Source: Sneathiella sp.
GTDB taxonomy: Bacteria > Pseudomonadota > Alphaproteobacteria > Sneathiellales > Sneathiellaceae
DNA: 64,000 bases
Assembly (NCBI GenBank): GCA_017643685.1
Contig: JAEPMY010000003.1
Coordinates: 1 to 64,000, forward strand
Direction: 5' to 3'
Part shown: positions 3,005 through 43,763 of the stretch, in pieces
Layout of the letters: each line of letters opens with the position of its first letter
Position numbering within the stretch: position 1 is the stretch's first letter
Notes under the pieces: generated by a model
Told to the model about the DNA's origin: nothing
The model's database searches: none
The model's input: the letters and a program-made list of their open reading frames with translations, nothing else
Program-made: the position numbers and the translations under genes

Positions 3005-4540
3005 ATGAAGTTACGTGTCGTTTTGGGGGATCAGCTTTCTCTTCATCTCTCTAGTTTGAGGGATGTGGATGCACATCAGGACCGTATCTTGATGTGTGAA
3101 ATCCGGCAGGAGACGGACTATGTCGAACATCATCAGAAAAAGATCGCTTTTATTTTCTCGGCCATGCGACATTTTGCTGAAAGTCTTCGCGTTGAAGGTT
3201 TAAAGGTTCAATATCGCAAGTTTGATGACCCTGAGAATTCAGGCAGTTTCATAGGCGAAATCAAGGCGCTGATGAAAGCGCAGTCCTTTAGTTCGGTCGT
3301 GATTACGACACCGGGCGAATATCGTCTTTGGGAAGAAATAAAGGGCTGGGAACAAGAGATCGGAATTCCTGTTGAAATACGGTCAGATGACCGCTTTTTA
3401 TGTTCAATTCGGGATTTTAGGCAGTGGGCTGACGGGCGTAAACAACTGCGGATGGAGCATTTCTACAGAGAGATGCGCCGTCATCATAACATCCTGATGG
3501 ATGGCAATAAACCAGTCGGCGGCAAATGGAACTATGACGCTGAAAACCGCAAACCTGCGGATGATAGCCTTAAAGTTCCAGCCCCTCACAAAACAGAACC
3601 AGATCAGATAACCCGCGATGTATTGGATTTGGTCGATAACGAGTTTTCTGATCATATCGGCTCCTTACATCCGTTTCATTACGCCGTGGATCGGCAGGGT
3701 GCTCTTGCGGTTCTGGATCATTTTATCTCTCACAGGCTTCCTCACTTTGGTGATCACCAAGATGTCATGCTGGAGGGGGAGCCGTGGATGTACCACAGCC
3801 ATATCAGTTTGTATCTGAATGTGGGGCTGTTAGATCCGATGGAATGCATTCGGGCGGCGGAGCGCGCCTATTATGACGGGCAGGCTCCGTTAAATGCTGC
3901 TGAAGGCTTCATTCGGCAGATTTTGGGGTGGCGAGAATATGTCCGGGGCATTTATTGGTGGCAAATGCCATCCTATGCGACAGAGAATTTCCTGAACGCG
4001 TCCCGTGAGCTGCCGCCGCTCTTTTGGGGAGAGGCAACGAAAATGAACTGCCTTTCCCAAGTGATTTCAGAAACCTTGGAGAATGCTTACGCCCATCATA
4101 TTCAGCGATTGATGATTGTCGGCAACTTCGCGTTGCTGGCAGGGCTTCATCCCGATGGGGTCAACAACTGGTATTTGCGGGTTTATGCAGATGCCTTTGA
4201 GTGGGTGGAAATGCCGAATGTAACGGGAATGATCCTGTTTGCGGATGGCGGTTTGCTGGCATCAAAGCCATATGCTGCGGGGGGCGCTTATGTTTCCCGA
4301 ATGTCTAATTATTGCGATAACTGCGCGTATAAAGTCTCCAAAAAGAACGGGGAAGGGGCATGTCCTTTTAATTATCTTTATTGGGATTTTCTGATCCGAA
4401 ATCAGGACACATTATCCGATAACCCGCGCCTTGGGATGCCGTATCGGAATTTGGCGCGAATGGATGATGACAAGATCAAAATGATCAAACAGGATTCAAA
4501 CCGGTTTTTGAAAGCCATGGATAATGCGGAAAAAATCTGA
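3005..4540 (+). CDS. Cryptochrome/photolyase-related protein (FeS-BCP / (6-4) photolyase type)
   Basis: [18 protein letters not shown]..., C-terminal [29 protein letters not shown], four Cys residues expected for the FeS cluster ([20 protein letters not shown]). Confidence 0.92.
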
Positions 4541-4679
4541 CTTGCCGCAGAAAATCTGCCCTATCTGTGATCGCCCATTTAGGTGGCGGAAAAAATGGGC
4601 GCGGGATTGGGAAACGGTACTCTATTGCTCGGAGCGTTGTCGCCGGTCTAAAAATCAACCGAAGGCGATTAAGTCTTAA
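4524..4679 (+). CDS. DUF2256-type small zinc-finger-like protein (51 aa)
   Basis: My translation from ATG 4524: [51 protein letters not shown]. CPxC...YCSxRCR pattern. Below the ORF-track size cutoff; overlaps the photolyase stop. Confidence 0.88.
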
Positions 4680-5125
4680 GGTTTTAAGGCGTCTTTCTCT
4701 CGTAAGTATCGGTAAATTTCCGCCAGTAATTTGACCCGAAATTTCTCATATTCATCTTGAATTTTGGTGCGAAGTTGACCCTGTAATTCTGTTATTTTCT
4801 GTGAGTTATCCTCGGAAGCGGCTTTCCAGGCATAATCTCGCTCGGCCTTTCGAAGATCGATTTCAAGTTCTTCTTTTAGTCGCCGAAGGGTTAGGTCATG
4901 CTCCTCGGCGAGGCGGCTAACCGCCATTTTGTCAGTCTGTGTTGGATCATCTGGTGGCGTCAGACCGACCCGATACCGTTTCACCAGATCCTGCGCCTTT
5001 TCAATGACATCATGGATCGTCAGCGTGATCGTTTTGGGGTGCGCAATTTCTGCGGCATTTGCGGTCAGCAGAGGGGCCGCGAAGAAGAACACAAACATAA
5101 ACAGGGCAAGAGAGGCGCGCAGCAT
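4676..5125 (-). CDS. Hypothetical exported coiled-coil protein
   Basis: Signal peptide [26 protein letters not shown] followed by a charged helical region; ORF extends to 5200 but the signal peptide suggests a start at 5125. Confidence 0.55.
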
Positions 5126-28209: not shown

Positions 28210-29193
28210 ATGGAAGAGAAAAAAGCGTTACGAAAATACCATATGGCCGTTGAAATGGCGGATGGACAGAAGGATAAATTGCTGGTTGAGGATAGCCATC
28301 AGGTTGATCCGAAACTTGCAAAAACCCGGATTGAGCGGACCAAACTTCGAAACGGCGGCAGTATTGATTATCAGGAAATTGTCTTGGATCAGGAAATGCG
28401 CATGGATGTCGCCAGCGCTTCCAAAATCCTTCAGATATGTGTGATGCTCCCGATTGAGGGGCGCTATACAATGATTACCCCTGATGGCAAAGAGTGCCAT
28501 TTCTCTTCCAATCAAGGGTTTATGTTCCGTGACATTGGGAAAGACTACACCTTCATTTTGCCAGAAAACCAAATTGTCCGAAGCATGGGGTTCTGTTTCA
28601 CTCCAGAGGTTTTTGCACGGTATCTGGATAATCGAATTCCAGAAACGATGAAGCCAATGTTCCAACCGATAGAAGACGGAACCCTGCCGATGGCGTTCCC
28701 TTTAAGCAAATTCATGCGGGAGACGTTGGATCGGAACATTCAAATCGAGGCTCAAGGTTCTTTGCAACAAATTCAGTGGGAAGCAACCGCACTTCTTTGC
28801 ATGGCGCTTGTTGAAGAAAGCATGCGTAAATCAACGAGCGAGACAGAATTTAGCCCTAGCAAAGAAGATAAAAAGAAAGCGGAAGAGGCTTTGGGCTTGT
28901 TGATGTGCGATTTGCGGGACCCACCGTGCCTCTCCGATCTCGCCAAGAAGTTGGCTTTCACTGAAAAGCGCTTGAATTTGGTGTTTAAATCTCTTTATGG
29001 GGACACCGTATTTGAATGTTTGCGGTCTATGCGGCTTGAAAAAGCAAAAAGTCTGATCGAAACAACAGATATGGCCATTAAAGAGATTGCCTGGGCGGTC
29101 GGATATAACCACAGCACCAATTTTTCCAAGGCGTTCACCGGAAAATTTGATGTCACACCTGCAAGTTATGCGAAGAAGGTCCGCACCCTCTAA
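28210..29193 (+). CDS. AraC family transcriptional regulator (I)
   Basis: C-terminal double HTH: LSDLAKKLAFTEKRLNLVFKSLYGDTVFECLRSMRLEKAKSLIETTDMAIKEIAWAVGYNHSTNFSKAFTGKFDVTPASY. Confidence 0.9.
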   Translation: MEEKKALRKYHMAVEMADGQKDKLLVEDSHQVDPKLAKTRIERTKLRNGGSIDYQEIVLDQEMRMDVASASKILQICVMLPIEGRYTMITPDGKECHFSSNQGFMFRDIGKDYTFILPENQIVRSMGFCFTPEVFARYLDNRIPETMKPMFQPIEDGTLPMAFPLSKFMRETLDRNIQIEAQGSLQQIQWEATALLCMALVEESMRKSTSETEFSPSKEDKKKAEEALGLLMCDLRDPPCLSDLAKKLAFTEKRLNLVFKSLYGDTVFECLRSMRLEKAKSLIETTDMAIKEIAWAVGYNHSTNFSKAFTGKFDVTPASYAKKVRTL

Positions 29194-29349
29194 CCCTTCA
29201 CGCATATAAAATAACCCCTCCTTCATACGAGGCAGTGATTAAAAGCCGCTTCTGTTTTCGCTATCTTCAACCCTGTTTGTTTGCGTGCATACATAAATTA
29301 AGGGCCGGATCCCATCATAATCTGGGCCGGCTGAACAGGGGTGTGGAAG

Positions 29350-32300
29350 ATGCGTTGGTTGCTTATCGTCCTTTTTGCGTTTGTAGGTATTTTTGAGCTT
29401 TCTAATGATAGTGAAGCGAAGCCTGTCTGCGGTGGGATTGAAGCCAATGGACAATTGCAACCTGCCTGTAAAAGTCAGCCTGGAAAATTAGCGGGCGCGC
29501 CGGTCCTCTCGTGCCCAGCAGGGCAAATATATGATTTGGAGGCGTGCTGGACTTGCCCTGCCGGATTTGAACGGTCTGCAGACTCAATCGCAACAAAAAC
29601 CGCCTGTACCCGCGTCACCAATAAAGATGTGTTTGGTGATGTACGGCAGGCAAGCCGAATTCCAAACGCAAATTTTTGTCCAAGTGGCAGCTTTTTCGAT
29701 CTGTATAATGGGGGTGGTTGTTGGTCTTGCCCTGGCGGATACCGCCGGACAATTTTCCCTGTGTTCGAAGATAAAGCGTGTGAAAAAGGAGATATTTTCT
29801 CTGGAATTAAATGGGCGCCTGCGAACTTTCGGTCCGCAACTTGTGGTTCTGATAATGCGTTCTTTGACCTGACTGATGGCGGTAGTTGCTGGTCTTGCCC
29901 TGCTGAATATGTGCGAACAGTATTTCCCGTAACAGGTCCTAAGGCTTGTGGTCGTCCGATTATGGAAACAAAGCCTGCGACCCAGATAAAGAAGGCTGGC
30001 TGTAAAGCTTATGGGGAAGATGCCTTTTGGGATCCAAGGGGAACGAACGGAACCGTCATCGGAAGTTGTTGGACGTGTCCAGCTGATTACACGCGCACCA
30101 CCGAAGCCGTTGACTCCCCTTATGCATGTGCAGCGCCGGCTATTATCTGGGATGTCCCAAAACTGCCTCGGAAAGGGCTTTTCCTTCTGGATGGTGCAGC
30201 AGAAGTTGCTGTTAAGCTGATCAAGGAGCGGCATCAGCTTGAGAAGGTTGCGGTAGATCTTGGAAAACAGATCGGCCTCAACCGTCAGGATGCTATTGAT
30301 GCTCTCTGGCGTGAGATCGGGCAGTATCCTGAAGAGAATCTCGCCCTTCGCTATGTGATGCTGAAGCATATTCTAAATATTGCATTGGATAACACTAAGA
30401 CAGTTCCTGGTAATAGCCCCGAAGGCCGTCTCATTCGCGCATTTGAAGGCTTTATTTCGGGGTATAAGCTTTATTTGGCTCAGGAATCGCTGAACGCGTA
30501 TGACAATTGGTATGCGGCGCAACAGCTTGCTTTAAAGAAACGAAACGAAGAAAACGCACGTCAGATGCGAAGCAATATGCTGATGCTATTTACCGATCAG
30601 ATGCCAGTTCCACCGGATTTCCGCCAAGTGGTTGCGCGTTCTGCTTTGATTAACATGGCTGCTGCTACTCCGACAATTGGGCTTTTTGCCTCTAACTTTA
30701 TTTCGCTAAGTGATGGCACGCTTGCTGATGAAATGACCCGTCGGATTTTTGTAAATCGGACAGATAGTTTCAAAGGCAGTGTGGATGATGTTATTAATTC
30801 TGCAGATGAAATTGGGGATGTCTCTCGCCAGATATTCGGTCAAGGGGATGATGTTGCGGCGATGGCGAAGAACTTTACTGGCGCCATTGACGATATAGCG
30901 AAAACGGCTGCAACAGCATCTAAGTCGGCTGTATCCGCAGGAAAGTTAGCCACCAAAATTTTAGGAATTACAGGTCCCGGTATAGCCATCGAATTTTTTA
31001 TGTTGGCATTTGAGGCTGAGCTTACCACAAACTTGGAAAAAGCAGATGCTCGTCCAAAATTGGTTAGGTATTTAGAGCAGGCCAAGAATTATAAACCGAG
31101 CCTTCGTACCATTAGTCAGAATAAAAGTGAGTCGGCTAAGATATTCTCTTATTGGGCACTGGCAACAACTGGCGATGCTCGGCCAAGTGGGCCAAAGATG
31201 GCTCAGATCGGTCAGGCTGCGGATGCAAACCTGTCTGGGCATACGCTGAAAGTAGACCCTCTGGCTTTCGATGGCAAAGAGTGGACATGGTATAATGTGG
31301 CCGGGGAAGCTAAACACATTTCTTCTGGCCTTTCCGGTGATGTTTGGCATGTTGCCGCAGATGGCAGTGTTTACCATGCAAATGCAAATAGTGATAAAAG
31401 CTGGCAGAAAACCAATCTTAAAAATGTTGCTAAAATAGCGTCGCTCCCCACTTCAAGGACGGCCTTCGTCCTTAATGATAAAGGGGGCATGAGAGTGTTC
31501 CAAGACGGTCGGGTGAGTAATGTACCGGGCTGGGCTGCGGATATTGCTGTGAACGCCCGCGGGGTAAAATGGCATATCGGTGGAAGTAATTCCGTTTATA
31601 TGGAAGATGATAATGGTGGATGGCGCCGGATAACTGCACCAAAAGCGAAGAAGATTGCCGCTGGCCCGGGTGATATCGCGTGGATTGTCGATACCAATAA
31701 CAATCTGCATTACCACTATTCCGGCAAATGGACTAATGCCCAGAAAAAAGCAAAAGATGTTGCTGTGGGTGCTGCTGGCGATGTTTGGATCGCCGGTGAG
31801 GATGACCAGGCATATAGGCTGATTTATAACAATAGATGGGAGCCGCTAGACGCGGGTAATGTTGACCGTGTGGCGAGTGTGTCTGTTGGGATGCTTTGGG
31901 CGCTCCGTCCGAACAACCACATCATCCTGTATCAACATGATCAGCAGGGTGTGTCTCCCTTGGCGCAAAAAGGTGGGCTGAGAGATACCTCGCAAACGAC
32001 GACTAATGGTGGGGATATTGCCATAACCCCGATCATTATCGATAAAGATAAAATTGTCGTCACGACTTACACGTCTACAAATGGGCCTAAAAAACCTAAG
32101 TGGCGGGAAGTTGCCGGTTGGGCATCTCAGATCAGTACGGGTCCAAGCGGCGATGTCTGGCATATCGGCGGTAGTGGATCGGTTTATGTTCGCCTCAAAG
32201 GGAAAACCGGTTGGAAAGACACAGGCTTGAGGTCGTTTAAGAATGTGCAGGCAAGCCGATTGTCCGGAAAAGCTTTTGGGTTGGATGAAAATGGCGCAAT

Positions 32301-32742
32301 GTGGGATATCTGGGAAAGCGGGCGCAAAACACAGGTGCCAGGCTGGGCAAGTGATATCGCGATCGATTCAAATGATGTGAAATGGCATATCGGCGGAAAC
32401 TCAACCATTTACAAAATGGGGCCCAATGGGTGGGTTCAAATCCCGGGCAACCTTTCCAAGGTTGCAGCCGGTAAAGATGGTGCCCTTTGGACTGTTGGTC
32501 TGAACCGCGAAATTTATCGTTTTGATAACGGAAAATGGTTGCAGGAGCCGGGCGAAGCATTCGATGTCGCTGTCGGCGCCGACGGGTCCATATGGCATAT
32601 TGGGGGTAGCAATAGCCTCTATAAGCTCACCGATAAGGGGTGGGAAGGTGTAGACGCGCAAAAGGCGAGTAACCTCTCGGTTGGACCAAAGGGAGAGGTC
32701 TGGATTGTACGACCAAACGGTAGTATGGCTGTTTTTAAATAA
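29350..32742 (+). CDS. Exported protein: four Cys-rich 'CW[ST]CP' modules, helical/hydrophobic mid-domain, two tandem tectonin-like beta-propeller regions
   Basis: Signal peptide MRWLLIVLFAFVGIFELSNDSEA; modules such as CPSGSFFDLYNGGGCWSCPGGYRRTIFPVFEDKAC; repeats such as SSGLSGDVWHVAADGSVYHA, STGPSGDVWHIGGSGSVYVR, AVGADGSIWHIGGSNSLYKL. Confidence 0.85.
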   Translation: MRWLLIVLFAFVGIFELSNDSEAKPVCGGIEANGQLQPACKSQPGKLAGAPVLSCPAGQIYDLEACWTCPAGFERSADSIATKTACTRVTNKDVFGDVRQASRIPNANFCPSGSFFDLYNGGGCWSCPGGYRRTIFPVFEDKACEKGDIFSGIKWAPANFRSATCGSDNAFFDLTDGGSCWSCPAEYVRTVFPVTGPKACGRPIMETKPATQIKKAGCKAYGEDAFWDPRGTNGTVIGSCWTCPADYTRTTEAVDSPYACAAPAIIWDVPKLPRKGLFLLDGAAEVAVKLIKERHQLEKVAVDLGKQIGLNRQDAIDALWREIGQYPEENLALRYVMLKHILNIALDNTKTVPGNSPEGRLIRAFEGFISGYKLYLAQESLNAYDNWYAAQQLALKKRNEENARQMRSNMLMLFTDQMPVPPDFRQVVARSALINMAAATPTIGLFASNFISLSDGTLADEMTRRIFVNRTDSFKGSVDDVINSADEIGDVSRQIFGQGDDVAAMAKNFTGAIDDIAKTAATASKSAVSAGKLATKILGITGPGIAIEFFMLAFEAELTTNLEKADARPKLVRYLEQAKNYKPSLRTISQNKSESAKIFSYWALATTGDARPSGPKMAQIGQAADANLSGHTLKVDPLAFDGKEWTWYNVAGEAKHISSGLSGDVWHVAADGSVYHANANSDKSWQKTNLKNVAKIASLPTSRTAFVLNDKGGMRVFQDGRVSNVPGWAADIAVNARGVKWHIGGSNSVYMEDDNGGWRRITAPKAKKIAAGPGDIAWIVDTNNNLHYHYSGKWTNAQKKAKDVAVGAAGDVWIAGEDDQAYRLIYNNRWEPLDAGNVDRVASVSVGMLWALRPNNHIILYQHDQQGVSPLAQKGGLRDTSQTTTNGGDIAITPIIIDKDKIVVTTYTSTNGPKKPKWREVAGWASQISTGPSGDVWHIGGSGSVYVRLKGKTGWKDTGLRSFKNVQASRLSGKAFGLDENGAMWDIWESGRKTQVPGWASDIAIDSNDVKWHIGGNSTIYKMGPNGWVQIPGNLSKVAAGKDGALWTVGLNREIYRFDNGKWLQEPGEAFDVAVGADGSIWHIGGSNSLYKLTDKGWEGVDAQKASNLSVGPKGEVWIVRPNGSMAVFK

Positions 32743-32903
32743 GATATTGAAATAATTAATATATAGAAGGTATCGGGGCGATTTTTGAACAAGGTTAGTA
32801 TTATGTTTGCAATTAAAAATATTTGCTGGAACATGATAAAAGAATGTATCAAAAGTTGAAGTGAGTTTAGTTCAGTTCACGTAAATGATTAGGTAGAGAT
32901 TAA

Positions 32904-33869
32904 ATGGATCCTCTTTCAAATTATGTGGTGCTTAATTCCTCCGATGTTAGTGAAGTGGAGGAGATGATCAGCCATCTTTCCACACCGTTCAAAATGAACA
33001 TCATCGGGGACTATAGTAAATTTGATACGCGTATCGCCGTGGCGGATGTGGGTGATGTTCGTATTATGCACAGCACATTTGGCGATGTTGGCATTGAAAT
33101 CTCTTCTGAGGGGGAAACCGATGACGGCCTTCTTCTTTTTGTCCCGACCGAGGGGGGAGGGTCTATTACTCACCTCAAGAAAGAATGGGAGTATTCAGAG
33201 CAAAAAGGTATCTTTCGTGACCTCGGTCGGCACTCTGTTGCCTATCAGGAGAACTTCCATACCTATGCCATTCCTCTATCGAAGCAAAAATTGCGAGAGC
33301 ACGCCCTTCGATTAGGCGGTGAAAAGCTCTCCTTGGTGCCACTTGAATTTGACCCGGCGGCTGATTTTTCATCTGAAGGAGGATTACTTCTACGTCAGAC
33401 TCTGGAATTCACCGCGCAAGCGTTGGATGGGCCGCTTAGAAACATGGACGGGGAACTGATCAAGGCGCAGATGTCAGACCTGATTATGACACAGATCTTG
33501 ACGCAACTTGCGAGTACTGTTCAGGATCGCCTGAACGGCCGTGAGGTGTCAAATATTCTGCCCCGGAGTGTCAAGCGCGCACAGGATTACATTCATGCGC
33601 ATCCCGCCGATAAATTGGATATGACTACCTTAGCTGAGGTTGCGGGATGTAGTTATCGTACCTTGCAGCGCGGATTTTTGGATGCTTTCGATGTGACCCC
33701 GCAGCAGTACATTCGGAAAATCCGTTTGATAGAGGTTCGCAGGGAGCTTTTGTCCTCAGGCCGAAAACAGAACGTTGCAAATATTGCCCGTCGATGGGGA
33801 TTTGCGCATATGGGCCGATTTGCCCAGGAATATGCCAAGGAATTTGGCGAGTCCCCTTCGGAAACTTAA
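32904..33869 (+). CDS. AraC family transcriptional regulator (II)
   Basis: MTTLAEVAGCSYRTLQRGFLDAFDVTPQQYIRKIRLIEVRRELLSSGRKQNVANIARRWGFAHMGRFAQEYAKEFGESPS; different N-terminal sensor domain from the 28210 gene. Confidence 0.9.
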   Translation: MDPLSNYVVLNSSDVSEVEEMISHLSTPFKMNIIGDYSKFDTRIAVADVGDVRIMHSTFGDVGIEISSEGETDDGLLLFVPTEGGGSITHLKKEWEYSEQKGIFRDLGRHSVAYQENFHTYAIPLSKQKLREHALRLGGEKLSLVPLEFDPAADFSSEGGLLLRQTLEFTAQALDGPLRNMDGELIKAQMSDLIMTQILTQLASTVQDRLNGREVSNILPRSVKRAQDYIHAHPADKLDMTTLAEVAGCSYRTLQRGFLDAFDVTPQQYIRKIRLIEVRRELLSSGRKQNVANIARRWGFAHMGRFAQEYAKEFGESPSET

Positions 33870-34067
33870 TATGAATACGCCTAACCTATCCATATTTGGA
33901 CACCATTATCCACATCACGACAAAATCGGTCAGGTGGGCGTAATCCTGAATTGTTTGTTCTCCACTATTTTCTTAATCAGGACTTGCGGATGTTGTTTTA
34001 AGGGGCTGGAAAATATGCCTTTTCTCAAGCACCCGCATTTTGTGAAGACGGATGTAGGGGATTTAGG

Positions 34068-36506
34068 ATGACTTGTCTTTGGGGTCGATTGAAGGGCGGG
34101 CTTTTCGCTTGTTTAGCAATATTACTTTCATTTTTTGTTGTCATGTCAGCAGAAGATGCGTTTGCCGCTAATTACCAAACACAAGATGGTTATGAAGGAA
34201 CCGCTCTGTGCGGTGCGGTTGACCTTCGGACCGGCCGATTGTTGGACCCTTGTGGTTTCACAAGTGCCACAAAAATTGGAAATGCGAGGAAAGAGTGTCC
34301 TAGTGGGTCGTTTTTCGATATCGGAACCTGGTCTTGTTTTTCCTGTCCGTCAGGGTTTAATCGCACCGGTTTTCACATCCAATCAGATAAAGCCTGCTCT
34401 CGCGAAATTGCACCGCCTAAATTTGTACCGGCCATTGAGCAAGGAAACCAACAGTCCTGCGATGGTGGTAGCTTCCACGATCCGCGAAATGGCGGTGAAT
34501 GCTGGAAATGTCCAGATGGATACGGCCGGACTGGAGCTGCTGTCAATGAATGGAATGCATGCGGTATGGTTTTCAAGTCGGCGCGCTCTGCAGAATTTAT
34601 CAAAAGCGTCTGTCCACAAGGAACATTCCCGGATCCAAATGGGAAATGCTACTCCTGCCCGGAAGATGGTATTCGGACTTGGGAAGCTGCGTCACATTCT
34701 CGTGCATGTATGATTAATGAACAGCAGGAGCCAGCCGTACAGGAGGCGGCGTTGACCTGTAAGGCGGGTGAGCATTTCGACTTTGTAGACGGAGGAACCT
34801 GCTGGACATGTCCAGAAGGCTCTGTTCGTTCATTAAGCTCCGTAAAGAGTGGTAACGCTTGCGAATATTTGACAATGCGTTGGGAAAGCAAGCCACGGAC
34901 GTCAAATGGATTATTCGGTATTCCAGGGGCGGCAGAGATCGTTGCCGATGTTATTCTGAACCGGGATCTGATTGATGCGACTATTCAGAATTACATGAAA
35001 GAAGCGAAGATCACTGACGAGAATTTCCCAGAGGAAGCATGGCAAAAGATCTGGTCAAAGCCGGAAGAATCCACTCCGCTTAATTCAGCCGTTTACCAAC
35101 ATGTTTACAATCTCATTCTGAAAGGTCCGAAGCAGCCATATGAACGGGCATTTCTTGAGTATTTTGCGACATATATTCAGCAATCCCGCAAATTGTCTTC
35201 TCAGGAAATGAAAAACGCGTGGGAAAGTTGGAAGCGTGGCGTTGAAGCCCGGACCAGTATGAATACCACACCAAATAACTTGGTTAACATTTTTAATATT
35301 GGCTATCGTCCACCTGACATGCCTTCTCTTGTTGGCGGTGTAATGCACTTGGGACCATCTGCGACGGTTATTGCCACATATGCCGGCATCGCGTTGTTAG
35401 AAGGTAAGTCGGTCGCGTTTGCAAATGCGTCGGGCACTCTTGCAAAAGGTATTCTCCCATATCGCTTTGCTGCAGATATTGTCCGAGGGACCACAAAAAT
35501 TGCCGATGGACTGGCGCGGACTGGCGCTAATGCTGCCTCCGCTGGTGGGGTTGGTCTCTCGTCTGTGGCGGGACCATTTGTAATTCTAACGGTTGCCGCG
35601 ATTATCACGTCAATTGCAACTGATATCGCGATGGATCAGGAGAAGCAGGAAGCTATCGTTAATGACGCGTTGGAAGTCGCCAAACGCCCGATCATTCTCT
35701 CGCGTATGGCGTCCTATGATGACGGTCGGAACGAAATGTTGGGTAACTGGGCATTGATGACCCAGGAAATGATTTCCCCAAACTCCTCTTATTGGGCGGG
35801 ATTGAAAAACCGGGTCTTATTTAACGATAAACCGATTAGCGGTAGCCGCTGGGTGGATTTCAACCAGACAGCGCAAGGGATTGCAATTGGTTCAGACCAG
35901 TCAGTCTACATCCTGAAAAATATGCCAATGCCAACAGGCTTTCAGTTGGCTCGTTTTGATACCCTGACAAACAGCTTCGTAAATGTTGGTGTTGTTGGCG
36001 CCACCAAGATTGCAGTCGCCGGAGATGTGCTTTGGGGTATCGATAAGAATAAGCGGGTTTTCTATTTCGCTAATAATCGCGCCAATGTGGTGAATGCCCC
36101 ACCGGCAATGGATATCGGGGCCGCAGACCAGTTTGTCTGGATCCTTGATACTCAAGGCGCATTACACCGCTTCGAAAATGGGCGTTGGATTAAAGAGTCT
36201 GGTCAAGGAACGTCCATTGATGTGGATCGGATGGGCCGTCCATGGGTGACCAATAGTAAGCGAGAAATTTGGACCAAAAATAATAATGGCCAATGGTTCA
36301 AGCTTTACGGTGAAGGGTTTGATGTTGCGGCATTTGAGGAAAATCGCGGAAGTGTCGTTGGCTCTGATGGAATTGCGTATCGCTTTAATCCAGATGCGAA
36401 AAGGTGGGAACCGTTGGGGCGGAATACTGACACTCAATTCCTTGCCATGAACTACTCCCAGATATGGCGAATTACCAAAAACGGCAAAGTTTCCAAATGG
36501 CAATAA
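34068..36506 (+). CDS. Exported paralog: four Cys-rich modules, helical/hydrophobic mid-domain, one tectonin-like propeller region
   Basis: N-terminal hydrophobic signal; CPSGSFFDIGTWSCFSCPSGFNRTGFHIQSDKAC, CDGGSFHDPRNGGECWKCPDGYGRTGAAVNEWNAC, CPQGTFPDPNGKCYSCPEDGIRTWEAASHSRAC, CKAGEHFDFVDGGTCWTCPEGSVRSLSSVKSGNAC; C-terminal SIDVDRMGRPWVTNSKREIWTKN repeats. Confidence 0.83.
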   Translation: MTCLWGRLKGGLFACLAILLSFFVVMSAEDAFAANYQTQDGYEGTALCGAVDLRTGRLLDPCGFTSATKIGNARKECPSGSFFDIGTWSCFSCPSGFNRTGFHIQSDKACSREIAPPKFVPAIEQGNQQSCDGGSFHDPRNGGECWKCPDGYGRTGAAVNEWNACGMVFKSARSAEFIKSVCPQGTFPDPNGKCYSCPEDGIRTWEAASHSRACMINEQQEPAVQEAALTCKAGEHFDFVDGGTCWTCPEGSVRSLSSVKSGNACEYLTMRWESKPRTSNGLFGIPGAAEIVADVILNRDLIDATIQNYMKEAKITDENFPEEAWQKIWSKPEESTPLNSAVYQHVYNLILKGPKQPYERAFLEYFATYIQQSRKLSSQEMKNAWESWKRGVEARTSMNTTPNNLVNIFNIGYRPPDMPSLVGGVMHLGPSATVIATYAGIALLEGKSVAFANASGTLAKGILPYRFAADIVRGTTKIADGLARTGANAASAGGVGLSSVAGPFVILTVAAIITSIATDIAMDQEKQEAIVNDALEVAKRPIILSRMASYDDGRNEMLGNWALMTQEMISPNSSYWAGLKNRVLFNDKPISGSRWVDFNQTAQGIAIGSDQSVYILKNMPMPTGFQLARFDTLTNSFVNVGVVGATKIAVAGDVLWGIDKNKRVFYFANNRANVVNAPPAMDIGAADQFVWILDTQGALHRFENGRWIKESGQGTSIDVDRMGRPWVTNSKREIWTKNNNGQWFKLYGEGFDVAAFEENRGSVVGSDGIAYRFNPDAKRWEPLGRNTDTQFLAMNYSQIWRITKNGKVSKWQ

Positions 36507-36580
36507 GTCGAATTACCGGGTCTGCATATCTGCGGGCCCGGCTAAACCAGTTTGAAGAACAAAAATGCGGACAGATCAAT

Positions 36581-38536
36581 ATGTCTTTTAAAAAAGTGGC
36601 ACGTAACACGGCGGTATCAACAGGGGTTATTCTGTTGGCAGGATGTCAGACCTTTAATGGTGCATCCCTGCCACCTGAGCAGAGTAAAAATACAGCATCC
36701 TTTCAGGTTGCTTCTACCTATCAGACCAGTGCGGTTCAGGAGCTTGTGAAAGCAGGTGTTCAGAAGATGCAGGAAAATGAGTTGGAGGAAGCGTCTCGCC
36801 TGGTGAACCTGGCGTTGAAGTTGGATATCACCAATTCGGATCTGCAATTGCTGAACGGGTTTGCCTATCACCTGATGTCCAAAGCGGGCGATGCCACAAA
36901 GCTGGAGCTCGCGGAGCAGGGGTATCAACAGGCGTTGAGGTTTGATCCGGGTAATCTGGCGGCGCAGTATCAGCTAGGCCATCTTTATATGGATCAGCGT
37001 AAATATGCGCTGGCCCAGAAGAATTTCGCAGCTGTGGCGCAGCATTATGCGGATGATGTGCCGGTTCTTTATAGTCTGGCGTCGGCTTCTTACTACGCCC
37101 GTGATCCGCGCACCGCAGAAGCGGCATTAAACCGCCTGCTGGAGGTCGATCCAGAGCAATATAATGCGCCCCACGTATTGAAAGCCATGAGCCTGAGCTT
37201 GTCCGCGATGAATGATACGGCTAAGGCAGGACAATTTGCGGATGCTTATCGTCAATCTGCTGATGACCAAATGAGTGTTGCAACATTGGAGCGACGGATG
37301 GAGGGATGGGGTCGTTTCTACGCGACAGATGCTAAAATCCTGAAAGCTCAATATAGCAGTAATCCATACGGAAGCTCATCTGGTAGTTCTCCTTACGGGA
37401 GCTCCCCATATGGTGGCAATGCTTATGGCGGAAGTGCATATGGTAATAACTCGTCAAGCAATTCCCCATATGGCAGCTCACAATATGGCTCGCAATCATA
37501 TGGTCAGAATAATACTAATCCAAATCAGGGAAGTGATCAGTTTAACGACCCATCCATGGTTGTTGTTGATGTGGTACTGATCGGGACACAGGAAGATGTT
37601 CGTAATACCCGCGGTGTGAACCTGCTTAATGGCTTGCAGCTTCAGTTTGGTGATAGCCTTTCCGGACAGCCGGGCTTTAGTTTTGGCGCGACGCGCATTA
37701 AGGATTCGCTGAATACCGGCCTGGCTCAAAATACACAAACCATCACGCAGTTGATCTCTATTCCGGCGGTGAACTATTCTCTGAATATTGCCAACTCTGC
37801 TGATGCGAGTAACAAGGTGCTTGCAAAACCAAGCTTGGTTGCGCAAACCGGTCAGACATCTGAGTTTTTCTCCGGTACAGAAATTCTGGCGGCTGCGGTC
37901 TCTGGCGGTAACGGAGATAGTGTCTCCGTTCAGAAAGAAGTGGGCGTTAAACTTGCGATCACACCAGAAATTCTCCCGGATGATATGATCCGCCTTCATG
38001 TGGTGGCGGAGCGGACCTTCCTGACGGACCCTTCTAACTCTGTTGTGTTTGAATTCCGATTGGACACCACAAAAACTAATGTGAATTCAACTGTCACCAT
38101 GAAGTTTGATGAAACATTGATTTTGGGCGGACTTAGTGAGAGGGAAACGTCTAAATCAGCCGATGGTGTTCCTCTTCTAATGGATGTTCCGGTTCTGAAT
38201 ATGCTGTTTTCCCAACGGACTGAACGTGAATTTGAAAGGTCCGTTCTGATTTTGCTGACCCCACGTCGTCCACATTATACCCGTCAGGATAAAGTTGGCC
38301 GGGAAGAGACATTGGATAAGCTGACACCGCTTGAGAAAGAAATCGAGCGGTTGGAGCAGCGCCACAAAGATTGGTTTTCGCCGCGCCCTGCATTCAGCGA
38401 AGTTCTTGAAAGTCTGCAAGGGCAAGAGTTCTTCGAAGAATTCCGTACCGGTGATGTCGAGCTGTTGTCTTGGCAAAAAGACGAAACAGTTCAACAGAAT
38501 ATCTCTCTTTTGCAGAAACGGATCCTGTCAGAGTAA
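36581..38536 (+). CDS. Lipoprotein with TPR repeats, Tyr/Gly/Ser-rich linker and C-terminal secretin domain
   Basis: Lipobox VILLAGCQ; TPRs (AEQGYQQALRFDPGNLAAQYQLGHLYMDQRKYALAQKNF); linker NPYGSSSGSSPYGSSPYGGNAYGGSAYG; secretin motifs KVLAKPSLVAQTGQTSEFFSGTEI, KEVGVKLAITPEI, VPLLMDVPVLNMLFSQRTEREFERSVLILLTPRRP. Confidence 0.87.
   Translation: MSFKKVARNTAVSTGVILLAGCQTFNGASLPPEQSKNTASFQVASTYQTSAVQELVKAGVQKMQENELEEASRLVNLALKLDITNSDLQLLNGFAYHLMSKAGDATKLELAEQGYQQALRFDPGNLAAQYQLGHLYMDQRKYALAQKNFAAVAQHYADDVPVLYSLASASYYARDPRTAEAALNRLLEVDPEQYNAPHVLKAMSLSLSAMNDTAKAGQFADAYRQSADDQMSVATLERRMEGWGRFYATDAKILKAQYSSNPYGSSSGSSPYGSSPYGGNAYGGSAYGNNSSSNSPYGSSQYGSQSYGQNNTNPNQGSDQFNDPSMVVVDVVLIGTQEDVRNTRGVNLLNGLQLQFGDSLSGQPGFSFGATRIKDSLNTGLAQNTQTITQLISIPAVNYSLNIANSADASNKVLAKPSLVAQTGQTSEFFSGTEILAAAVSGGNGDSVSVQKEVGVKLAITPEILPDDMIRLHVVAERTFLTDPSNSVVFEFRLDTTKTNVNSTVTMKFDETLILGGLSERETSKSADGVPLLMDVPVLNMLFSQRTEREFERSVLILLTPRRPHYTRQDKVGREETLDKLTPLEKEIERLEQRHKDWFSPRPAFSEVLESLQGQEFFEEFRTGDVELLSWQKDETVQQNISLLQKRILSE
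37350..37534 (+). repeat. Low-complexity Tyr-Gly-Ser/Asn coding repeat (PYGSS/AYGGS units)
   Basis: Degenerate repeats of 'tcc(a/t)ta(t/c)gg(n)agctc' encoding YSSNPYGSSSGSSPYGSSPYGGNAYGGSAYGNNSSSNSPYGSSQYGSQSYGQNN. Confidence 0.85.
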
Positions 38537-38575
38537 CGACTGGATCTGAATGATGCCCTTATAAGGATACGGTTT

Positions 38576-41098
38576 TTGACGAGTTCCCAGATAACACGCT
38601 TCCTTCCTGTAATACTGGCCTTTCTGTTGTTTGCGGTGGTTCTGATCCAGAGCGCTTTCGCACAATCAGAGGGGGGCGCGACCGAGACTTGGTTCGCCAT
38701 TCCCGGTCGCGCCATTGATCTCTCTATTAACGAGGAGGGGCAGGCCTATGCCCTTGGGCAGAGCGGAAGGGTTTGGCGCTGGGATAAGGTGGAACAAAGA
38801 TGGCGGCCTATGGCGGGCGAGTTCGCTCGCATTACAGCAGCAGAAGGGAACCGTCCTTGGGCTGTAGATCAAGAGGGGGGTGTTCATCGGTATAATGGTC
38901 TTTGGTGGGAGCCTAAGTCAGATGACGTGCTGGATGTGGCGGCCGATGCCAAGGGAAATGTCTATATCGCCAGAAAAGATACAAGCCTTTGGAAATGGTA
39001 TGCGCTTCGCAGTGAGTGGCGCCCTATCCCCGGACAAGCGGTAAGGCTTGATATTGGGGCAGATCAGTCGCTTTGGGGTATTCTGCCGGATGGGAGCGTT
39101 GCCGTATTCGACGGGCAGATGTGGGTTCCGTTCGCTGGAAGGGCCCTTGATCTTGCGGCAGGTACAAATGGACAGGTTGCTATTGCGACACCAGAGGGCG
39201 ATATCCGCTTGCTTAACCAACAAAACCGATCTTGGGATCTCGTTGGCGGCTTGAACGGTGTAGTCACGGTTTCTGTAACGCCAGAAGGGGGACTTTGGGC
39301 GGTTACGCGAAGCGGTGAGATTTATGCCAATAGAAAACTAAAAGAGGATGTTTCCGAAGAGGAGGAAAATAAAGCCGAGGGGATTAAGGCACCCGGCATT
39401 TCCTCTCCTTCCATTGTTGCATCTGCGCCTAAAGCCCCAAGCGGTGCGGCACCTGATATCGCTGCGCCGCCAGTGAATGCGCCACCACCGCCGCCTTCAA
39501 ACTCAACTGAAAATAACACAGAAGATGATCCCGGGTCAGTTGATTTGGCAGCCATTTCCGGGACGGAAGATATTCTTTTTGTGAATACAAGACGGGCGGC
39601 ATCCCTGTTATCGATTGGCAAGGATGGGAGTGTTTTTGGACTTGATCAGGTGGGAAATGTGTTGCGCTGGTCAAATAATCGGCGGGATTTTGAAAGCTTT
39701 CCCGGAACGCTTGTTAGAATTGCCGTGGACCCTGAAGGCAACCCTTGGGGCGTTACGGCGCTTGGGCGTGTTTTTCGGCATGACGGACGAGATTGGCAAC
39801 AGGTCTTAAACGCCGCGGCGTCTGATATCGCGATCGGGGGCGATGGGACGGTGATTATCGCCAATTCATCCGGTGTCCTCTTTAGGTTTAACGCGAATAG
39901 AAATCGTTTTGATCGCATTCAGGGAAGTGGGCTATTGGTTGCTGTTGACCCTGAGGGAAACCCATGGAGTGTTCGAAGCGATCAATTGGTACAACGATGT
40001 GATGTGACTCCCTGTCAGCCACTTGGCCAAAAAGCACGGAGCATCTCAATCGGGCCTGATGGAAGGGTCTGGATCGTTTCTGATGCGGAACGTTTAATGC
40101 GATTAGATGAAAAAATGGGTCGCTTCGTCCCAGTTCCCACTCTGGGGCTTCCCGTGAGGGATGTGGCCTCGGGACCCAACGGTTTTCCTTGGGTGGCAAC
40201 AACAGACGGGGTGGCTTTGTCATCCCGTTTCTTTGAGAGGGCAGAGGATCAGGATCAGACCACAATTGCAACGACCAGTGATGATACCGTTGGAACCGGG
40301 GCGACAGACACTCCTGTTTCAAATCAGGTGGATGGTTTTGTATTTACCAAAAATATGCGATTTGAAACTCTGAACCGTGGGGACTTGGATATCTTCGATA
40401 CACCATTTCTAGACGCTGGTAATGACGGAGAAATTTACGCTTATAACTATTCTGGTGGTTTTACGAAATTTGAAGAAGCTTCGAAGTCTTTCAAATACTT
40501 TTCAAGCCAGCTTGGTAGCCTCGGGTTTCAAGTTTTGGATTTCACGGTTGAATCCGATGGGGCGCTATGGGGATATATCAATGATCCGCAAAGTGTGATG
40601 AACGGCCTTTATCGTGAGAAAAACGGTGCTTTGCAGCAATTTTCGGTCAATGGTGCCGAAAATGCAGGGGTGACAGCGGCTCCTGATGACACGATTTATG
40701 CCATTTTCTCATTTCCGGGGAGTAAAAACTATCTGTATGAGAAGGCGCCAAACTCTAATGTTTTTCGGCGGTTCAGTACTTATAGTTTAGTTCATGACGT
40801 AGGTGTCGGCCCAGGGCGAGATATATGGATCGTTAATAAAAATAATGAAGTGATGCAATGGACGGGTTCTCGATTTGAAAAAAGACCAGCGTCCGGGCAA
40901 AGCGCCGCGCGGATTAGTGTGGGGGCGGAAGGATCGGTTTACATCGTTGATCCGGCGGATGAGCTTTATAAATGGAATGGCGCAAACAATAGCTTTGATC
41001 GCGTGAATAATACAGAGCTTAAAACTGTGGCGGTGGATGATACAGGCAAACCGTGGATTGGTGAGATTGATCCCGTTACGCTGAAGCGCGGGCGATAA
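38576..41098 (+). CDS. Exported multi-propeller tectonin-like protein with Pro-rich linker
   Basis: Signal peptide MTSSQITRFLPVILAFLLFAVVLIQSAFAQS (TTG start); repeats IDLSINEEGQAYALGQSGRVWRWD, LDIGADQSLWGILPDGSVAVFDGQMW, SISIGPDGRVWIVSDAERLMRLD; linker APPVNAPPPPPSNSTENNTEDDPGS. Confidence 0.82.
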   Translation: MTSSQITRFLPVILAFLLFAVVLIQSAFAQSEGGATETWFAIPGRAIDLSINEEGQAYALGQSGRVWRWDKVEQRWRPMAGEFARITAAEGNRPWAVDQEGGVHRYNGLWWEPKSDDVLDVAADAKGNVYIARKDTSLWKWYALRSEWRPIPGQAVRLDIGADQSLWGILPDGSVAVFDGQMWVPFAGRALDLAAGTNGQVAIATPEGDIRLLNQQNRSWDLVGGLNGVVTVSVTPEGGLWAVTRSGEIYANRKLKEDVSEEEENKAEGIKAPGISSPSIVASAPKAPSGAAPDIAAPPVNAPPPPPSNSTENNTEDDPGSVDLAAISGTEDILFVNTRRAASLLSIGKDGSVFGLDQVGNVLRWSNNRRDFESFPGTLVRIAVDPEGNPWGVTALGRVFRHDGRDWQQVLNAAASDIAIGGDGTVIIANSSGVLFRFNANRNRFDRIQGSGLLVAVDPEGNPWSVRSDQLVQRCDVTPCQPLGQKARSISIGPDGRVWIVSDAERLMRLDEKMGRFVPVPTLGLPVRDVASGPNGFPWVATTDGVALSSRFFERAEDQDQTTIATTSDDTVGTGATDTPVSNQVDGFVFTKNMRFETLNRGDLDIFDTPFLDAGNDGEIYAYNYSGGFTKFEEASKSFKYFSSQLGSLGFQVLDFTVESDGALWGYINDPQSVMNGLYREKNGALQQFSVNGAENAGVTAAPDDTIYAIFSFPGSKNYLYEKAPNSNVFRRFSTYSLVHDVGVGPGRDIWIVNKNNEVMQWTGSRFEKRPASGQSAARISVGAEGSVYIVDPADELYKWNGANNSFDRVNNTELKTVAVDDTGKPWIGEIDPVTLKRGR

Positions 41099-41180
41099 GG
41101 CATTCCGTTAAAATCATAAAGTACAAAAAAATTGTGTTTTTTGTTGTTCTCCGGAGCCTTTGAGGCTATCAGTCTGAGAC

Positions 41181-41603
41181 ATGGGACGGGCGCAACATCA
41201 TAAAATCTTATCATTGGGGCTGCTAATGGCATTCCTGATGAATATTATGTTGCCTTTTTTTGCCGTATATACCGCGCCAGATGCACGTGCGGCGGCAACT
41301 GATCCTGCTCTATCTGCTCTTTTTGGCGAAAAAATTGTGATTTGTACCCCGGAGGGGTTCAAACTTGTGAGCCTTGCAGAATTGGAAGGGGGGGAAGATC
41401 AGTCCTCTCAAGCAACGCGTTATGAATGTGCGCTTTGTTACACAGCGGCGCATGGTGTTCAGCATGTGCTCACTGAAGACGGCCTTGAAGTTATATATGA
41501 CGAGGCTGCCCAACCTACTTTCTACACAGCACGAGATTTTCAATCTGGCCCTGAAACGGAATGCCAGCCCTCGCACTCTCGTGCACCTCCAAAATTAGCC
41601 TGA
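41181..41603 (+). CDS. DUF2946-like small exported/membrane protein
   Basis: N-terminal hydrophobic segment LGLLMAFLMNIMLPFFAVYTAPDARA; ICTPEGFK; CxxC motif ECALCYTAAHG; directly upstream of a TonB receptor. Confidence 0.55.
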   Translation: MGRAQHHKILSLGLLMAFLMNIMLPFFAVYTAPDARAAATDPALSALFGEKIVICTPEGFKLVSLAELEGGEDQSSQATRYECALCYTAAHGVQHVLTEDGLEVIYDEAAQPTFYTARDFQSGPETECQPSHSRAPPKLA

Positions 41604-41678
41604 CTTTATCCAAATTTGAATTCTGTTTGCAGACACGGCCTGCCTGTGCCTGCCTTGACCTTATGTCTTGAGGCTAAA

Positions 41679-43763
41679 ATGAAACATAGTAGATTATTAA
41701 TTGGTGTTTTGTGTGCGAGTACTGCTTTAACGGCTCCTGCATATGCGGTGGAAAATCTGATGCTGGATGAAATTATTGTCACAGCACCGCGAAGCACCTC
41801 TCCCGCGGCGGAGAGTTATGACACTGACTATTTTATCCCATCTTATTCCTACTCTGATGGAGGAGATTACCTACGCTCTGTTCCCGGGATAACGAGTGGA
41901 CGTTTTGGCGGGCATGGGCTGGAGCCCTTTATCCGCGGACAATCCCAAAACCAGCTTAATATCATCGCAGAGGATGCATATACGTTTGGCGGATGCCCCA
42001 ACCGAATGGATGGACCGGCTGCATATCTGTATATTGAGAGTTATGATAGAATATTAGTCACAAAAGGGTATCAAACCGTTTTAAACGGCCCTGGTGCGAC
42101 AGGTGGTTCAATTATTTTAAAAAGAGATGTTCCTGAACTTGGCGAAGAGTTTTCAGTGTCAGGAGATGTCAGTTCCGGCTTTGATGGGAACGGTAGTACA
42201 TGGAACGCAGGCGCACGGGTTCTTGCAGGTACCACAGATGCTTATGTCCGGGCTCATTCCTCTTATAAGAATGGGGGTGATTACGAGGATGGTGACGGTG
42301 ATGAAGTTCGAAGTTCTTTTGAGCAGACCACAGGAGGTGTCGCCATTGGTGTTACGCCAGAGGATACACATTTCTTTTTGAGCTATGATTTTCATCGGAT
42401 CGATGATGCGTTGTTCCCTGGTGCGGGAATGGACAGCCCCATGTCAGAGGCGCAAACATTTCGTGCAGGATTTGAGATAGATTTTGAAGACGGCTTGGTT
42501 CGAAAATTTGATACTAGTTTCTATGGCTCTCTTGTGGATCACGTGATGGACAATTACAGCTTGCGTCCTGCTGGGGCCATGTTCCGTAAAGTAGAGTCTC
42601 AGTCTAATACATATGGCGCAAAGATGAAGACTGACCTTGATTTAGGGGGGCAGATTATCAAAACCTCGCTGGAATATCGGCGGAACATCCGTGATGCGGA
42701 TCGGCTGCAGGGGATGGCGGCAAATAATGTCAATATGCTGCAAGCCGTCATGTGGCCTGATATTTCAGCCGATGAGATTGGATTAGCTGTCGAAACCACC
42801 TTCAACCTTGGTAGCGAAGATCGGCTGATCGTTGGTGGCCGTTATGATTATGTAAATGTGGGTTATGGCCGCGCAGATCAGGTGGCGGGTGTCACAGGAC
42901 TTAGCGCAAACGATGTTTATAATCTTTTCTATGGATATGGTGCTGAGCAGAAAAGTGAGCATAACTTTGGCGGTTTGTTGCGTTATGAGCATGACTTTAG
43001 TGAGGGCGTTACATTCTTCACTGGAGTAAGCCGTGCAGTTCGAACAGCTGACGCGACGGAGCGCGGTCTAGCAAATTACATGGTGATGATGGGGGATAAT
43101 AGATCATGGGTTGGAAACCCAAATATTGACCCTGAGCAGCATCACCAGCTCGATTTCGGCGTGAAGATTGAGCAGAAAAATTGGGATTTCGGCGCCAGTG
43201 CGTATGTTAATCATGTTGATGATTATATTTTACGTGATTCCGCCCGTGGTCAGGCTGGTATTCTGCTGAACGCGCCAAATGCAGATGTTTACCGCAACGT
43301 GAATGCGCTGCTGTCCGGCTTCGAATTGCAGGGGGGGTGGAATATCACACCTGCTTTGCGGGTTGAAGGGGATGCCACCTATACATATGGTCAAAATTTG
43401 GATGAGGATATGGCACTCGCTCAAATCCCTGCGTTGCAAGGCTCTGTAAATGTGTTCTGGCAGGCGCATGATTATGTGGAAATTGGCAGCACAATGCGCT
43501 GGGCAACCAAGCAAAGCCGGGTAGACACGGACCCGACCACAGGGACTGGCCGTGATGTTAGGAAAACAAGCGGGTATGCGGTTTTTGATGTCAGTGCGAC
43601 AGTGACCAAACTTGATCCGCTCTCTGTCACCGTTGGAGTGAGTAATCTGTTTGATGAGACATATGCTAGTCATTTGAACCGGTCAAATATCTCTGACCCT
43701 ACGGAAATTCAGGTGAATGAGCCGGGGCGCTCATTCTATATTAGGGCAAAAATGCCATTTTAA
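41679..43763 (+). CDS. TonB-dependent receptor, OprC/NosA-like (putative copper)
   Basis: Signal peptide; plug domain LDEIIVTAPR; GHGLEPFIRGQSQNQLNIIAEDAYTFGGCPNRMDGPAAYLYIESYDRILVTKGYQTVLNGPGATGGSIILKRD; C-terminal beta strand ending in F. Confidence 0.82.
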   Translation: MKHSRLLIGVLCASTALTAPAYAVENLMLDEIIVTAPRSTSPAAESYDTDYFIPSYSYSDGGDYLRSVPGITSGRFGGHGLEPFIRGQSQNQLNIIAEDAYTFGGCPNRMDGPAAYLYIESYDRILVTKGYQTVLNGPGATGGSIILKRDVPELGEEFSVSGDVSSGFDGNGSTWNAGARVLAGTTDAYVRAHSSYKNGGDYEDGDGDEVRSSFEQTTGGVAIGVTPEDTHFFLSYDFHRIDDALFPGAGMDSPMSEAQTFRAGFEIDFEDGLVRKFDTSFYGSLVDHVMDNYSLRPAGAMFRKVESQSNTYGAKMKTDLDLGGQIIKTSLEYRRNIRDADRLQGMAANNVNMLQAVMWPDISADEIGLAVETTFNLGSEDRLIVGGRYDYVNVGYGRADQVAGVTGLSANDVYNLFYGYGAEQKSEHNFGGLLRYEHDFSEGVTFFTGVSRAVRTADATERGLANYMVMMGDNRSWVGNPNIDPEQHHQLDFGVKIEQKNWDFGASAYVNHVDDYILRDSARGQAGILLNAPNADVYRNVNALLSGFELQGGWNITPALRVEGDATYTYGQNLDEDMALAQIPALQGSVNVFWQAHDYVEIGSTMRWATKQSRVDTDPTTGTGRDVRKTSGYAVFDVSATVTKLDPLSVTVGVSNLFDETYASHLNRSNISDPTEIQVNEPGRSFYIRAKMPF

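What the first reader, a model, noticed from the sequence alone, without database searches (positions are those of the whole stretch)
28210..43763. Island pairing three exported tectonin-like propeller proteins with a lipoprotein TPR-secretin: candidate undescribed secretion or surface-assembly system
Seen: collinear genes in the order AraC, Cys-module/tectonin protein (1130 aa), AraC, paralog (812 aa), TPR-linker-secretin lipoprotein, third tectonin protein (840 aa), DUF2946-like, TonB receptor. All three tectonin proteins have signal peptides, and the secretin lies between two of them with short intergenic gaps. Known: secretins form large outer-membrane pores for T2SS, T3SS, T4P, Tad and phage, normally with N-domains, an ATPase and an inner-membrane platform; none of those partners is in this window. 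Tectonin propellers bind carbohydrate or LPS in eukaryotic lectins. Inference: the secretin may export or display the propeller proteins as a carbohydrate-binding surface or secreted complex, possibly as cargo of a platform encoded elsewhere.
Basis: partly seen in the sequence, partly recalled or inferred. Interest (0 to 1): 0.85.

Follow-up and report, generated by a model that had tools for sequence, protein, structure and literature searches.

The report
Platform-less secretin paired with lectin-like propellers
This is a recurring bacterial gene set in which an outer-membrane pore protein is always followed by a triple-propeller protein and usually preceded by exported sugar-binding proteins, and it occurs in genomes that lack the motor and platform such pores normally need, so it is a good candidate for an undescribed way of putting lectins on the cell surface.

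Summary
The window holds AraC–TectA–AraC–TectB–(TPR-secretin)–TectC, then an unrelated DUF2946/copper-receptor pair.

Scanning genomes with the secretin alone returned 76 loci. One well-supported secretin clade (alpha-, beta- and gammaproteobacteria) has TectC, a triple β-propeller, immediately downstream on the same strand in all 41 testable loci. The upstream gene is usually an exported lectin-fold protein: Ricin-B, tectonin, DM9 or SUEL domains.

In TectB-type passengers a Cys-rich plus helical body is constant, while the C-terminal lectin switches between tectonin and Ricin-B. The host genome carries a second copy of the module with a Ricin-B/crystallin-like passenger.

Nine Thalassospira genomes and one Ferrovibrio genome carry the module and have no GspF platform, no prepilin peptidase and no secretin outside this family. 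Five have no GspE-family ATPase at all. It is therefore not an ordinary T2SS, T4P or Tad secretin.

AlphaFold gives a PilF-like TPR domain fused through a disordered linker to a secretin domain, without N-domains.

Best reading: a self-piloting secretin, working with TectC, exports or displays swappable lectins. Composition and recurrence are shown; export, energy source and sugar specificity are inferred.

The parts
28210..29193 (+). AraC-type regulator 1 (AraC1), linked to the TectA branch
   Evidence: HTH_18 E=2.6e-19; homologue directly upstream of SEC-TectC-TectA in two Thalassospira loci, L061 and L062
29341..32742 (+). TectA passenger: signal peptide, Cys-rich modules, helical middle domain, C-terminal tectonin propeller regions
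   Evidence: PF19193 E=3e-32; PDB Tectonin 2 (5fsb) E=1.9e-21; Ncys and Mid profiles E=9e-78 and 2e-92
32904..33869 (+). AraC-type regulator 2 (AraC2), conserved upstream of TectB in most Thalassospira loci
   Evidence: HTH_18 E=7e-22 and AraC_binding_2; neighbourhoods
34068..36506 (+). TectB passenger: signal peptide, five Cys-rich modules (about residues 46-270), helical middle with a hydrophobic helix near residue 495, C-terminal lectin (tectonin here, Ricin-B in some orthologues)
   Evidence: PF19193 E=1.8e-8; alignment A5; Ricin-B in orthologues L054, L057, L064; hydropathy
36581..38536 (+). TPR-secretin lipoprotein (SEC): lipobox, TPR 41-259, disordered linker 260-325, secretin C-domain 326-562, helical tail 571-650
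   Evidence: PF00263 E=4e-30 and TPRs; PilW model TIGR02521 E=4e-11; AlphaFold; Foldseek hits to secretins and PilF
38576..41098 (+). TectC: constant partner; signal peptide plus three beta-propellers (about residues 39-251, 336-549, 596-839)
   Evidence: PF19193 E=8e-39; AlphaFold pLDDT 85.5; Tectonin 2 TMt 0.87, rmsd 2.3; immediately downstream of SEC in all 41 testable loci of the clade

Best explanation
A stand-alone, self-piloting secretin module that puts lectin-type proteins on or through the outer membrane. (1) SEC, TectC and the passengers (TectA, TectB) cross the inner membrane by Sec; SEC is lipidated and carried to the outer membrane by Lol (predicted from signals). (2) The N-terminal TPR domain of SEC is a PilF/TadD-like pilotin fused to a secretin channel domain, so the ring can assemble without a separate pilotin and without N-domain rings that would dock an inner-membrane platform (architecture predicted, assembly inferred). 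(3) TectC, a triple propeller, is an obligate partner of this secretin and probably acts as adaptor or cap at the ring (obligate linkage shown, role inferred). (4) The passengers fold in the periplasm as a Cys-rich and helical body carrying an interchangeable lectin head (tectonin, Ricin-B, DM9). They are delivered through or onto the ring so that the lectin is exposed or released, without a GspE-type motor (inferred). (5) Adjacent AraC regulators control expression (inferred). The outcome would be adhesion to, or recognition of, glycans.
For: Collection scan with SEC alone: 76 loci. In one clade (37 tree rows, SH-aLRT 100) every testable member has TectC next door on the same strand; with near-duplicates 41 of 41 loci, the one exception (L067) ending at its contig edge. 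SEC and TectC distances correlate (rho 0.88, 0 of 2000 permutations as high). Of 47 immediate upstream genes, 16 carry Ricin_B, 13 tectonin, 3 DM9 and 1 SUEL lectin; among 47 genes from the same loci but further away, no lectin family is among the 25 listed and none matches two or more. Constant Ncys/Mid body with a swapped lectin head, including DM9 plus Ricin-B in Ferrovibrio. Own-genome paralogue module with a Ricin/crystallin-like passenger. Nine Thalassospira genomes and Ferrovibrio: PF00482 0, PF01478 0; PF00437 0 in five Thalassospira, in the other five only partial hits; TPR-SEC is the only secretin found (the third T. australica secretin is also TPR-SEC). AlphaFold SEC and TectC. In the Tad system a TPR lipoprotein pilotin with a PilF-like fold binds the secretin C-terminus (PMC10499894), the natural parallel for the TPR-secretin fusion.
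Against: No experiment shows export, pore formation or sugar binding. No export signal is shared by all passengers: the own-genome Ricin/crystallin-like protein, the giant proteins and the L075 protein lack the Ncys/Mid body. No energy source is identified, and inner-membrane partners outside the tested families cannot be excluded. TectB has a hydrophobic helix near residue 495 that could instead anchor it in the inner membrane. A sister SEC clade sits in operons with TAXI-type solute-binding proteins and pentapeptide-repeat proteins, which hints at uptake or another role. The genomes searched are partly drafts.
Confidence: 0.55

Rival explanations
1. Glycan capture and import: surface lectins collect polysaccharide or glycoconjugate and the secretin is the uptake pore, loosely like SusCD, feeding periplasmic binding proteins.
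For: A sister SEC clade is co-operonic with TAXI-type solute-binding proteins (4-bp overlaps in L073, L082, L085) and pentapeptide-repeat proteins. Lectins beside an outer-membrane channel fit capture.
Against: No transporter, solute-binding protein or carbohydrate-active enzyme is a constant part of the tectonin modules. The passengers are very large and their lectin heads vary while the pore and TectC stay constant.
Confidence: 0.17
2. A non-exporting envelope scaffold: TectB is held in the inner membrane by its hydrophobic helix and, with TectC and the TPR domain, builds a trans-envelope assembly; the secretin ring is structural.
For: Hydrophobic helix with KD mean about 1.7-2.25 in most TectB orthologues; long disordered SEC linker.
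Against: TectA, the Ricin/crystallin-like passenger and L057 TectB lack that helix at the threshold used; swappable lectin heads are hard to explain without outward-facing glycans.
Confidence: 0.12
3. Lectin-targeted effector export: same export route, but the passengers are anti-competitor or anti-predator proteins aimed by lectins rather than adhesins.
For: Modular lectin plus helical/hydrophobic body; weak CDtoxinA-family matches overlapping the Ricin-B regions; extra passenger copies in some loci (L052).
Against: No recognised enzymatic or pore-forming domain; the CDtoxinA matches overlap Ricin_B and reflect the shared beta-trefoil fold.
Confidence: 0.1
4. An ordinary T2SS, T4P or Tad secretin whose platform is encoded elsewhere, with unrelated lectin neighbours.
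For: The host genome has Tad components.
Against: Those Tad loci have their own secretins. Nine Thalassospira genomes and Ferrovibrio carry the module without GspF or prepilin peptidase, five of them without any GspE relative. SEC has no N-domains. TectC linkage is invariant.
Confidence: 0.04

Closest known systems
Secretins of T2SS, T4P and Tad (GspD, PilQ, RcpA)
   Same: Secretin C-domain; best full-model Foldseek hits are secretins
   Different: No N-domains, TPR in cis, lipoprotein, no ATPase, platform or prepilin peptidase needed in the genome, lectin partners
PilF/PilW and TadD TPR pilotins
   Same: TIGR02521 E=4e-11; PilF 2ho1 is the best TPR structural match; lipidated
   Different: Fused to its secretin in one chain instead of a separate subunit
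Tectonin 2 of Laccaria bicolor (fungal lectin)
   Same: TectC propeller TMt 0.87, rmsd 2.3; sequence E=1e-36 for the TectA/B profile
   Different: Bacterial, multi-domain, exported, encoded with a secretin; sugar binding untested
[quoted passage not shown]
   Same: Multi-propeller exported protein working at an outer-membrane secretion machine (5m11 among the TectC fold matches; PMC5121618, PMC8545088)
   Different: The match is of propeller class only; TectC has three tectonin-type propellers and is tied to a secretin, not to T9SS
Filamentous phage pIV secretin
   Same: Secretin domain detectable (7ofh)
   Different: No phage genes next to the module; different N-terminal region and partners

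Membership tests
Secretin superfamily (PF00263) | Secretin C-domain over the curated cut-off | tested here: met
   105 bits against 27.5; AlphaFold and Foldseek
T2SS / T4P / Tad secretin | Dedicated GspE/PilB/TadA ATPase in the genome | tested here: not met
   PF00437: 0 hits in five Thalassospira genomes carrying the module; the search rings in all 14 control genomes
T2SS / T4P / Tad secretin | GspF/PilC/TadB platform protein | tested here: not met
   PF00482: 0 hits in nine Thalassospira genomes and Ferrovibrio
T2SS / T4P / Tad secretin | Prepilin peptidase | tested here: not met
   PF01478: 0 hits in the same ten genomes
T2SS / T4P / Tad secretin | Periplasmic N-domains before the secretin domain | tested here: not met
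   No N-domain Pfam hit; model shows TPR, disordered linker, C-domain
T3SS secretin (SctC) | Injectisome genes | tested here: inconclusive
   None seen beside the module in the window or in the loci inspected; no genome-wide T3SS search was made
PilF/TadD pilotin | TPR lipoprotein of PilF-like fold | tested here: met
   lipobox pattern in 52 of 63 SEC sequences
PilF/TadD pilotin | TPR part drives secretin assembly in the outer membrane | not testable with these tools
   Needs expression and membrane fractionation
Tectonin family (PF19193) | Match over the gathering score | tested here: met
   TectA 112, TectB 34.5, TectC 134 bits against 30
Tectonin family (PF19193) | Carbohydrate binding | not testable with these tools
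   No binding assay; ligand residues not mapped
Type IX secretion system (PorZ analogy) | T9SS C-terminal signal domain, PorU, SprA | not tested
   Analogy of propeller architecture only

The most novel reading that the evidence does not exclude
A secretion class not described in the literature searched here: a one-component, self-piloted secretin that exports folded proteins across the outer membrane without any inner-membrane platform, ATPase or pilins, paired with a dedicated propeller partner and swappable lectin passengers, and spread by horizontal transfer across several classes of Pseudomonadota, with related giant-lectin and pentapeptide/TAXI branches reaching Elusimicrobiota and Campylobacterota.
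Probability: 0.38. Interest if true: 0.92.

Novelty: new variant of a known kind. Interest (0 to 1): 0.77.

Why it matters
Secretins are understood as the outer-membrane end of large motor-driven machines. A secretin family whose members are the only secretins in genomes without those machines, and that is invariably linked to a propeller partner, would show that secretins can work as stand-alone outer-membrane devices and would raise a direct question of energy and gating. It also offers a genomic marker for many unstudied lectin-display loci in marine bacteria, testable in culturable Thalassospira strains.

Tried and rejected
Partners elsewhere in the genome: rejected. DUF2946 and the TonB receptor as module members: rejected because they do not accompany the module in other genomes and look like a copper-type pair. 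Chance adjacency: rejected by 41 of 41 linkage in loci retrieved by the secretin alone. Repeat or mobile-element boundaries: the repeat scan found only intragenic repeats of the Cys and propeller modules; G+C of the module (0.486) is like its flanks. Promoter and terminator scan: not above shuffled expectation. Literature: no paper joins tectonin and secretin in bacteria; 'orphan secretin' gives only a neuropeptide receptor paper. CDtoxinA matches: rejected as beta-trefoil overlap with Ricin_B.

Full report
Observation. Pfam assigns Tectonin to TectA, TectB and TectC, a secretin domain plus TPRs to the 36581-38536 protein (SEC), and AraC HTH domains to both regulators. The last two genes are a DUF2946-like protein and a TonB-dependent receptor at the edge of the copper-receptor model.

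Recurrence. I searched outward with the secretin only, so that lectin neighbours could not bias retrieval. The genome scan returned 76 loci. Gene calling around each showed a TectC-like propeller directly downstream, on the same strand, usually within 60 bp or overlapping, in all 41 testable loci of one clade. That clade is one side of a branch with SH-aLRT 100 in a 79-row tree and includes Thalassospira, Magnetovibrio, Ferrovibrio, a Hyphomicrobiales bin, Gallionellaceae, Burkholderiales and Rhodocyclales bins, Marinobacterium, Thalassolituus and HTCC5015. The single row without TectC ends at its contig edge. SEC and TectC distances correlate (rho 0.88). Occurrence is patchy: none of the other genomes of the window's genus carries a full-length SEC, and the genes flanking the module have other neighbours where they were found in relatives, which points to horizontal gain or to loss.

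Passengers. The immediate upstream gene is lectin-rich: of 47 such genes, 16 match Ricin_B, 13 Tectonin, 3 DM9 and 1 SUEL lectin (some proteins match more than one). Among 47 genes of the same loci at least four genes away, no lectin family matched two or more (only the 25 top families are listed, so a single hit could be hidden). In Thalassospira the usual order is AraC-TectB-SEC-TectC. TectA and TectB share a constant body: five Cys-rich modules and a helical middle domain. In L054, L057 and L064 the C-terminal tectonin is replaced by a Ricin-B domain over the Pfam cut-off, and in Ferrovibrio the body is flanked by DM9 and Ricin-B. The window's own genome has a second, diverged module (SEC 42% identical) whose upstream protein has Ricin-B domains and a crystallin-like region (the latter by eye). 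A conserved body with exchangeable lectin heads is the strongest sign that glycan binding is the output.

No platform. The window's genome has four secretins: two in Tad-like loci with PF00437 ATPases nearby and two of the TPR type. Independence is shown in other hosts. In nine Thalassospira genomes and a Ferrovibrio genome that carry the module there is no PF00482 platform and no PF01478 prepilin peptidase. In five Thalassospira genomes there is no PF00437 protein at all; the other five genomes have only partial PF00437 hits, VirB11-like by length (the VirB11 reading is inference). The TPR-secretins are the only secretins found in these genomes; the extra one in T. australica is also of this family and sits at the far end of an island with a giant protein. 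Magnetovibrio, like the window's host, has Tad as well.

Structure. The AlphaFold model of SEC (mean pLDDT 77) shows TPR helices 41-259, a disordered linker, a secretin C-domain 326-562 and a helical tail, without N-domains. Foldseek matches secretins (8jvb first) and, for the TPR part, PilF. In Tad, the TPR lipoprotein TadD, of PilF-like fold, binds the C-terminal residues of RcpA and this is essential for secretin formation (PMC10499894); a TPR-secretin fusion with a conserved C-terminal tail looks like the same partnership in one chain (inference). TectC (pLDDT 85.5) is three propellers after a signal helix; one matches Tectonin 2 at TMt 0.87. PorZ of T9SS, also a multi-propeller protein at an outer-membrane secretion machine, is among the fold matches, but only as the same fold class.

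Mechanism. Shown: gene composition, linkage, domain swapping, absence of known platforms, predicted folds. Inferred: Lol delivery, ring formation, TectC as adaptor or cap, lectin export or display, glycan recognition, AraC control. Energy for translocation is unknown; folding or diffusion through a gated ring, or assembly of a plug-like passenger in the ring, are possibilities.

Wider family. More distant TPR-secretins sit beside giant exported proteins (1100 to over 2600 aa), several with C-terminal Ricin-B domains, in Elusimicrobia, Campylobacterota and alphaproteobacteria, or in operons with TAXI-type binding proteins and pentapeptide-repeat proteins, or alone in small alphaproteobacterial genomes. 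This makes an uptake role a live rival and shows that the TPR-secretin family is broader than the tectonin modules.

Novelty. No paper in the searched library links tectonins or Ricin-B proteins to secretins; the library lacks most subscription papers, so this is not proof of novelty. Membership in T2SS, T4P or Tad fails on tested defining features, so it should not be filed there. Because function is unproven and the secretin domain is known, I rate it a new variant of a known kind, with a substantial chance of being a separate secretion class.

Noticed in passing
window 41181-43763: DUF2946-like gene followed by an OprC-like copper TonB receptor (TIGR01778 just under cut-off); separate from the module.
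   Followed up: partly
L157 (G000:C116), 3853-4719 minus: A further short tectonin protein (288 aa) in the host genome, away from any secretin.
   Followed up: no
L097-L109, L112 and L159/L160: Homologous giant exported proteins (1100 to over 2600 aa) next to TPR-secretins; several end in Ricin-B; no other clear Pfam domain. In T. australica a giant gene lies between two TPR-secretin genes.
   Followed up: partly
L143, L147, L148, L150, L082, L085: TPR-secretins in operons with TAXI-type solute-binding proteins and pentapeptide-repeat proteins.
   Followed up: partly
L083 and L144: Two TPR-secretin genes in tandem (Nitrospinaceae bin; genome G400).
   Followed up: no
L140, L141, L151, L152, L154, L156: Stand-alone TPR-secretins in small-genome alphaproteobacteria, without lectin neighbours.
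   Followed up: no
L117 and L118: Identical locus in MAGs labelled Elusimicrobia and Rokubacteria: probably the same contig binned twice.
   Followed up: no
L059: A MAG labelled Methylophaga carries a module whose secretin groups with alphaproteobacteria: transfer or misbinning.
   Followed up: no
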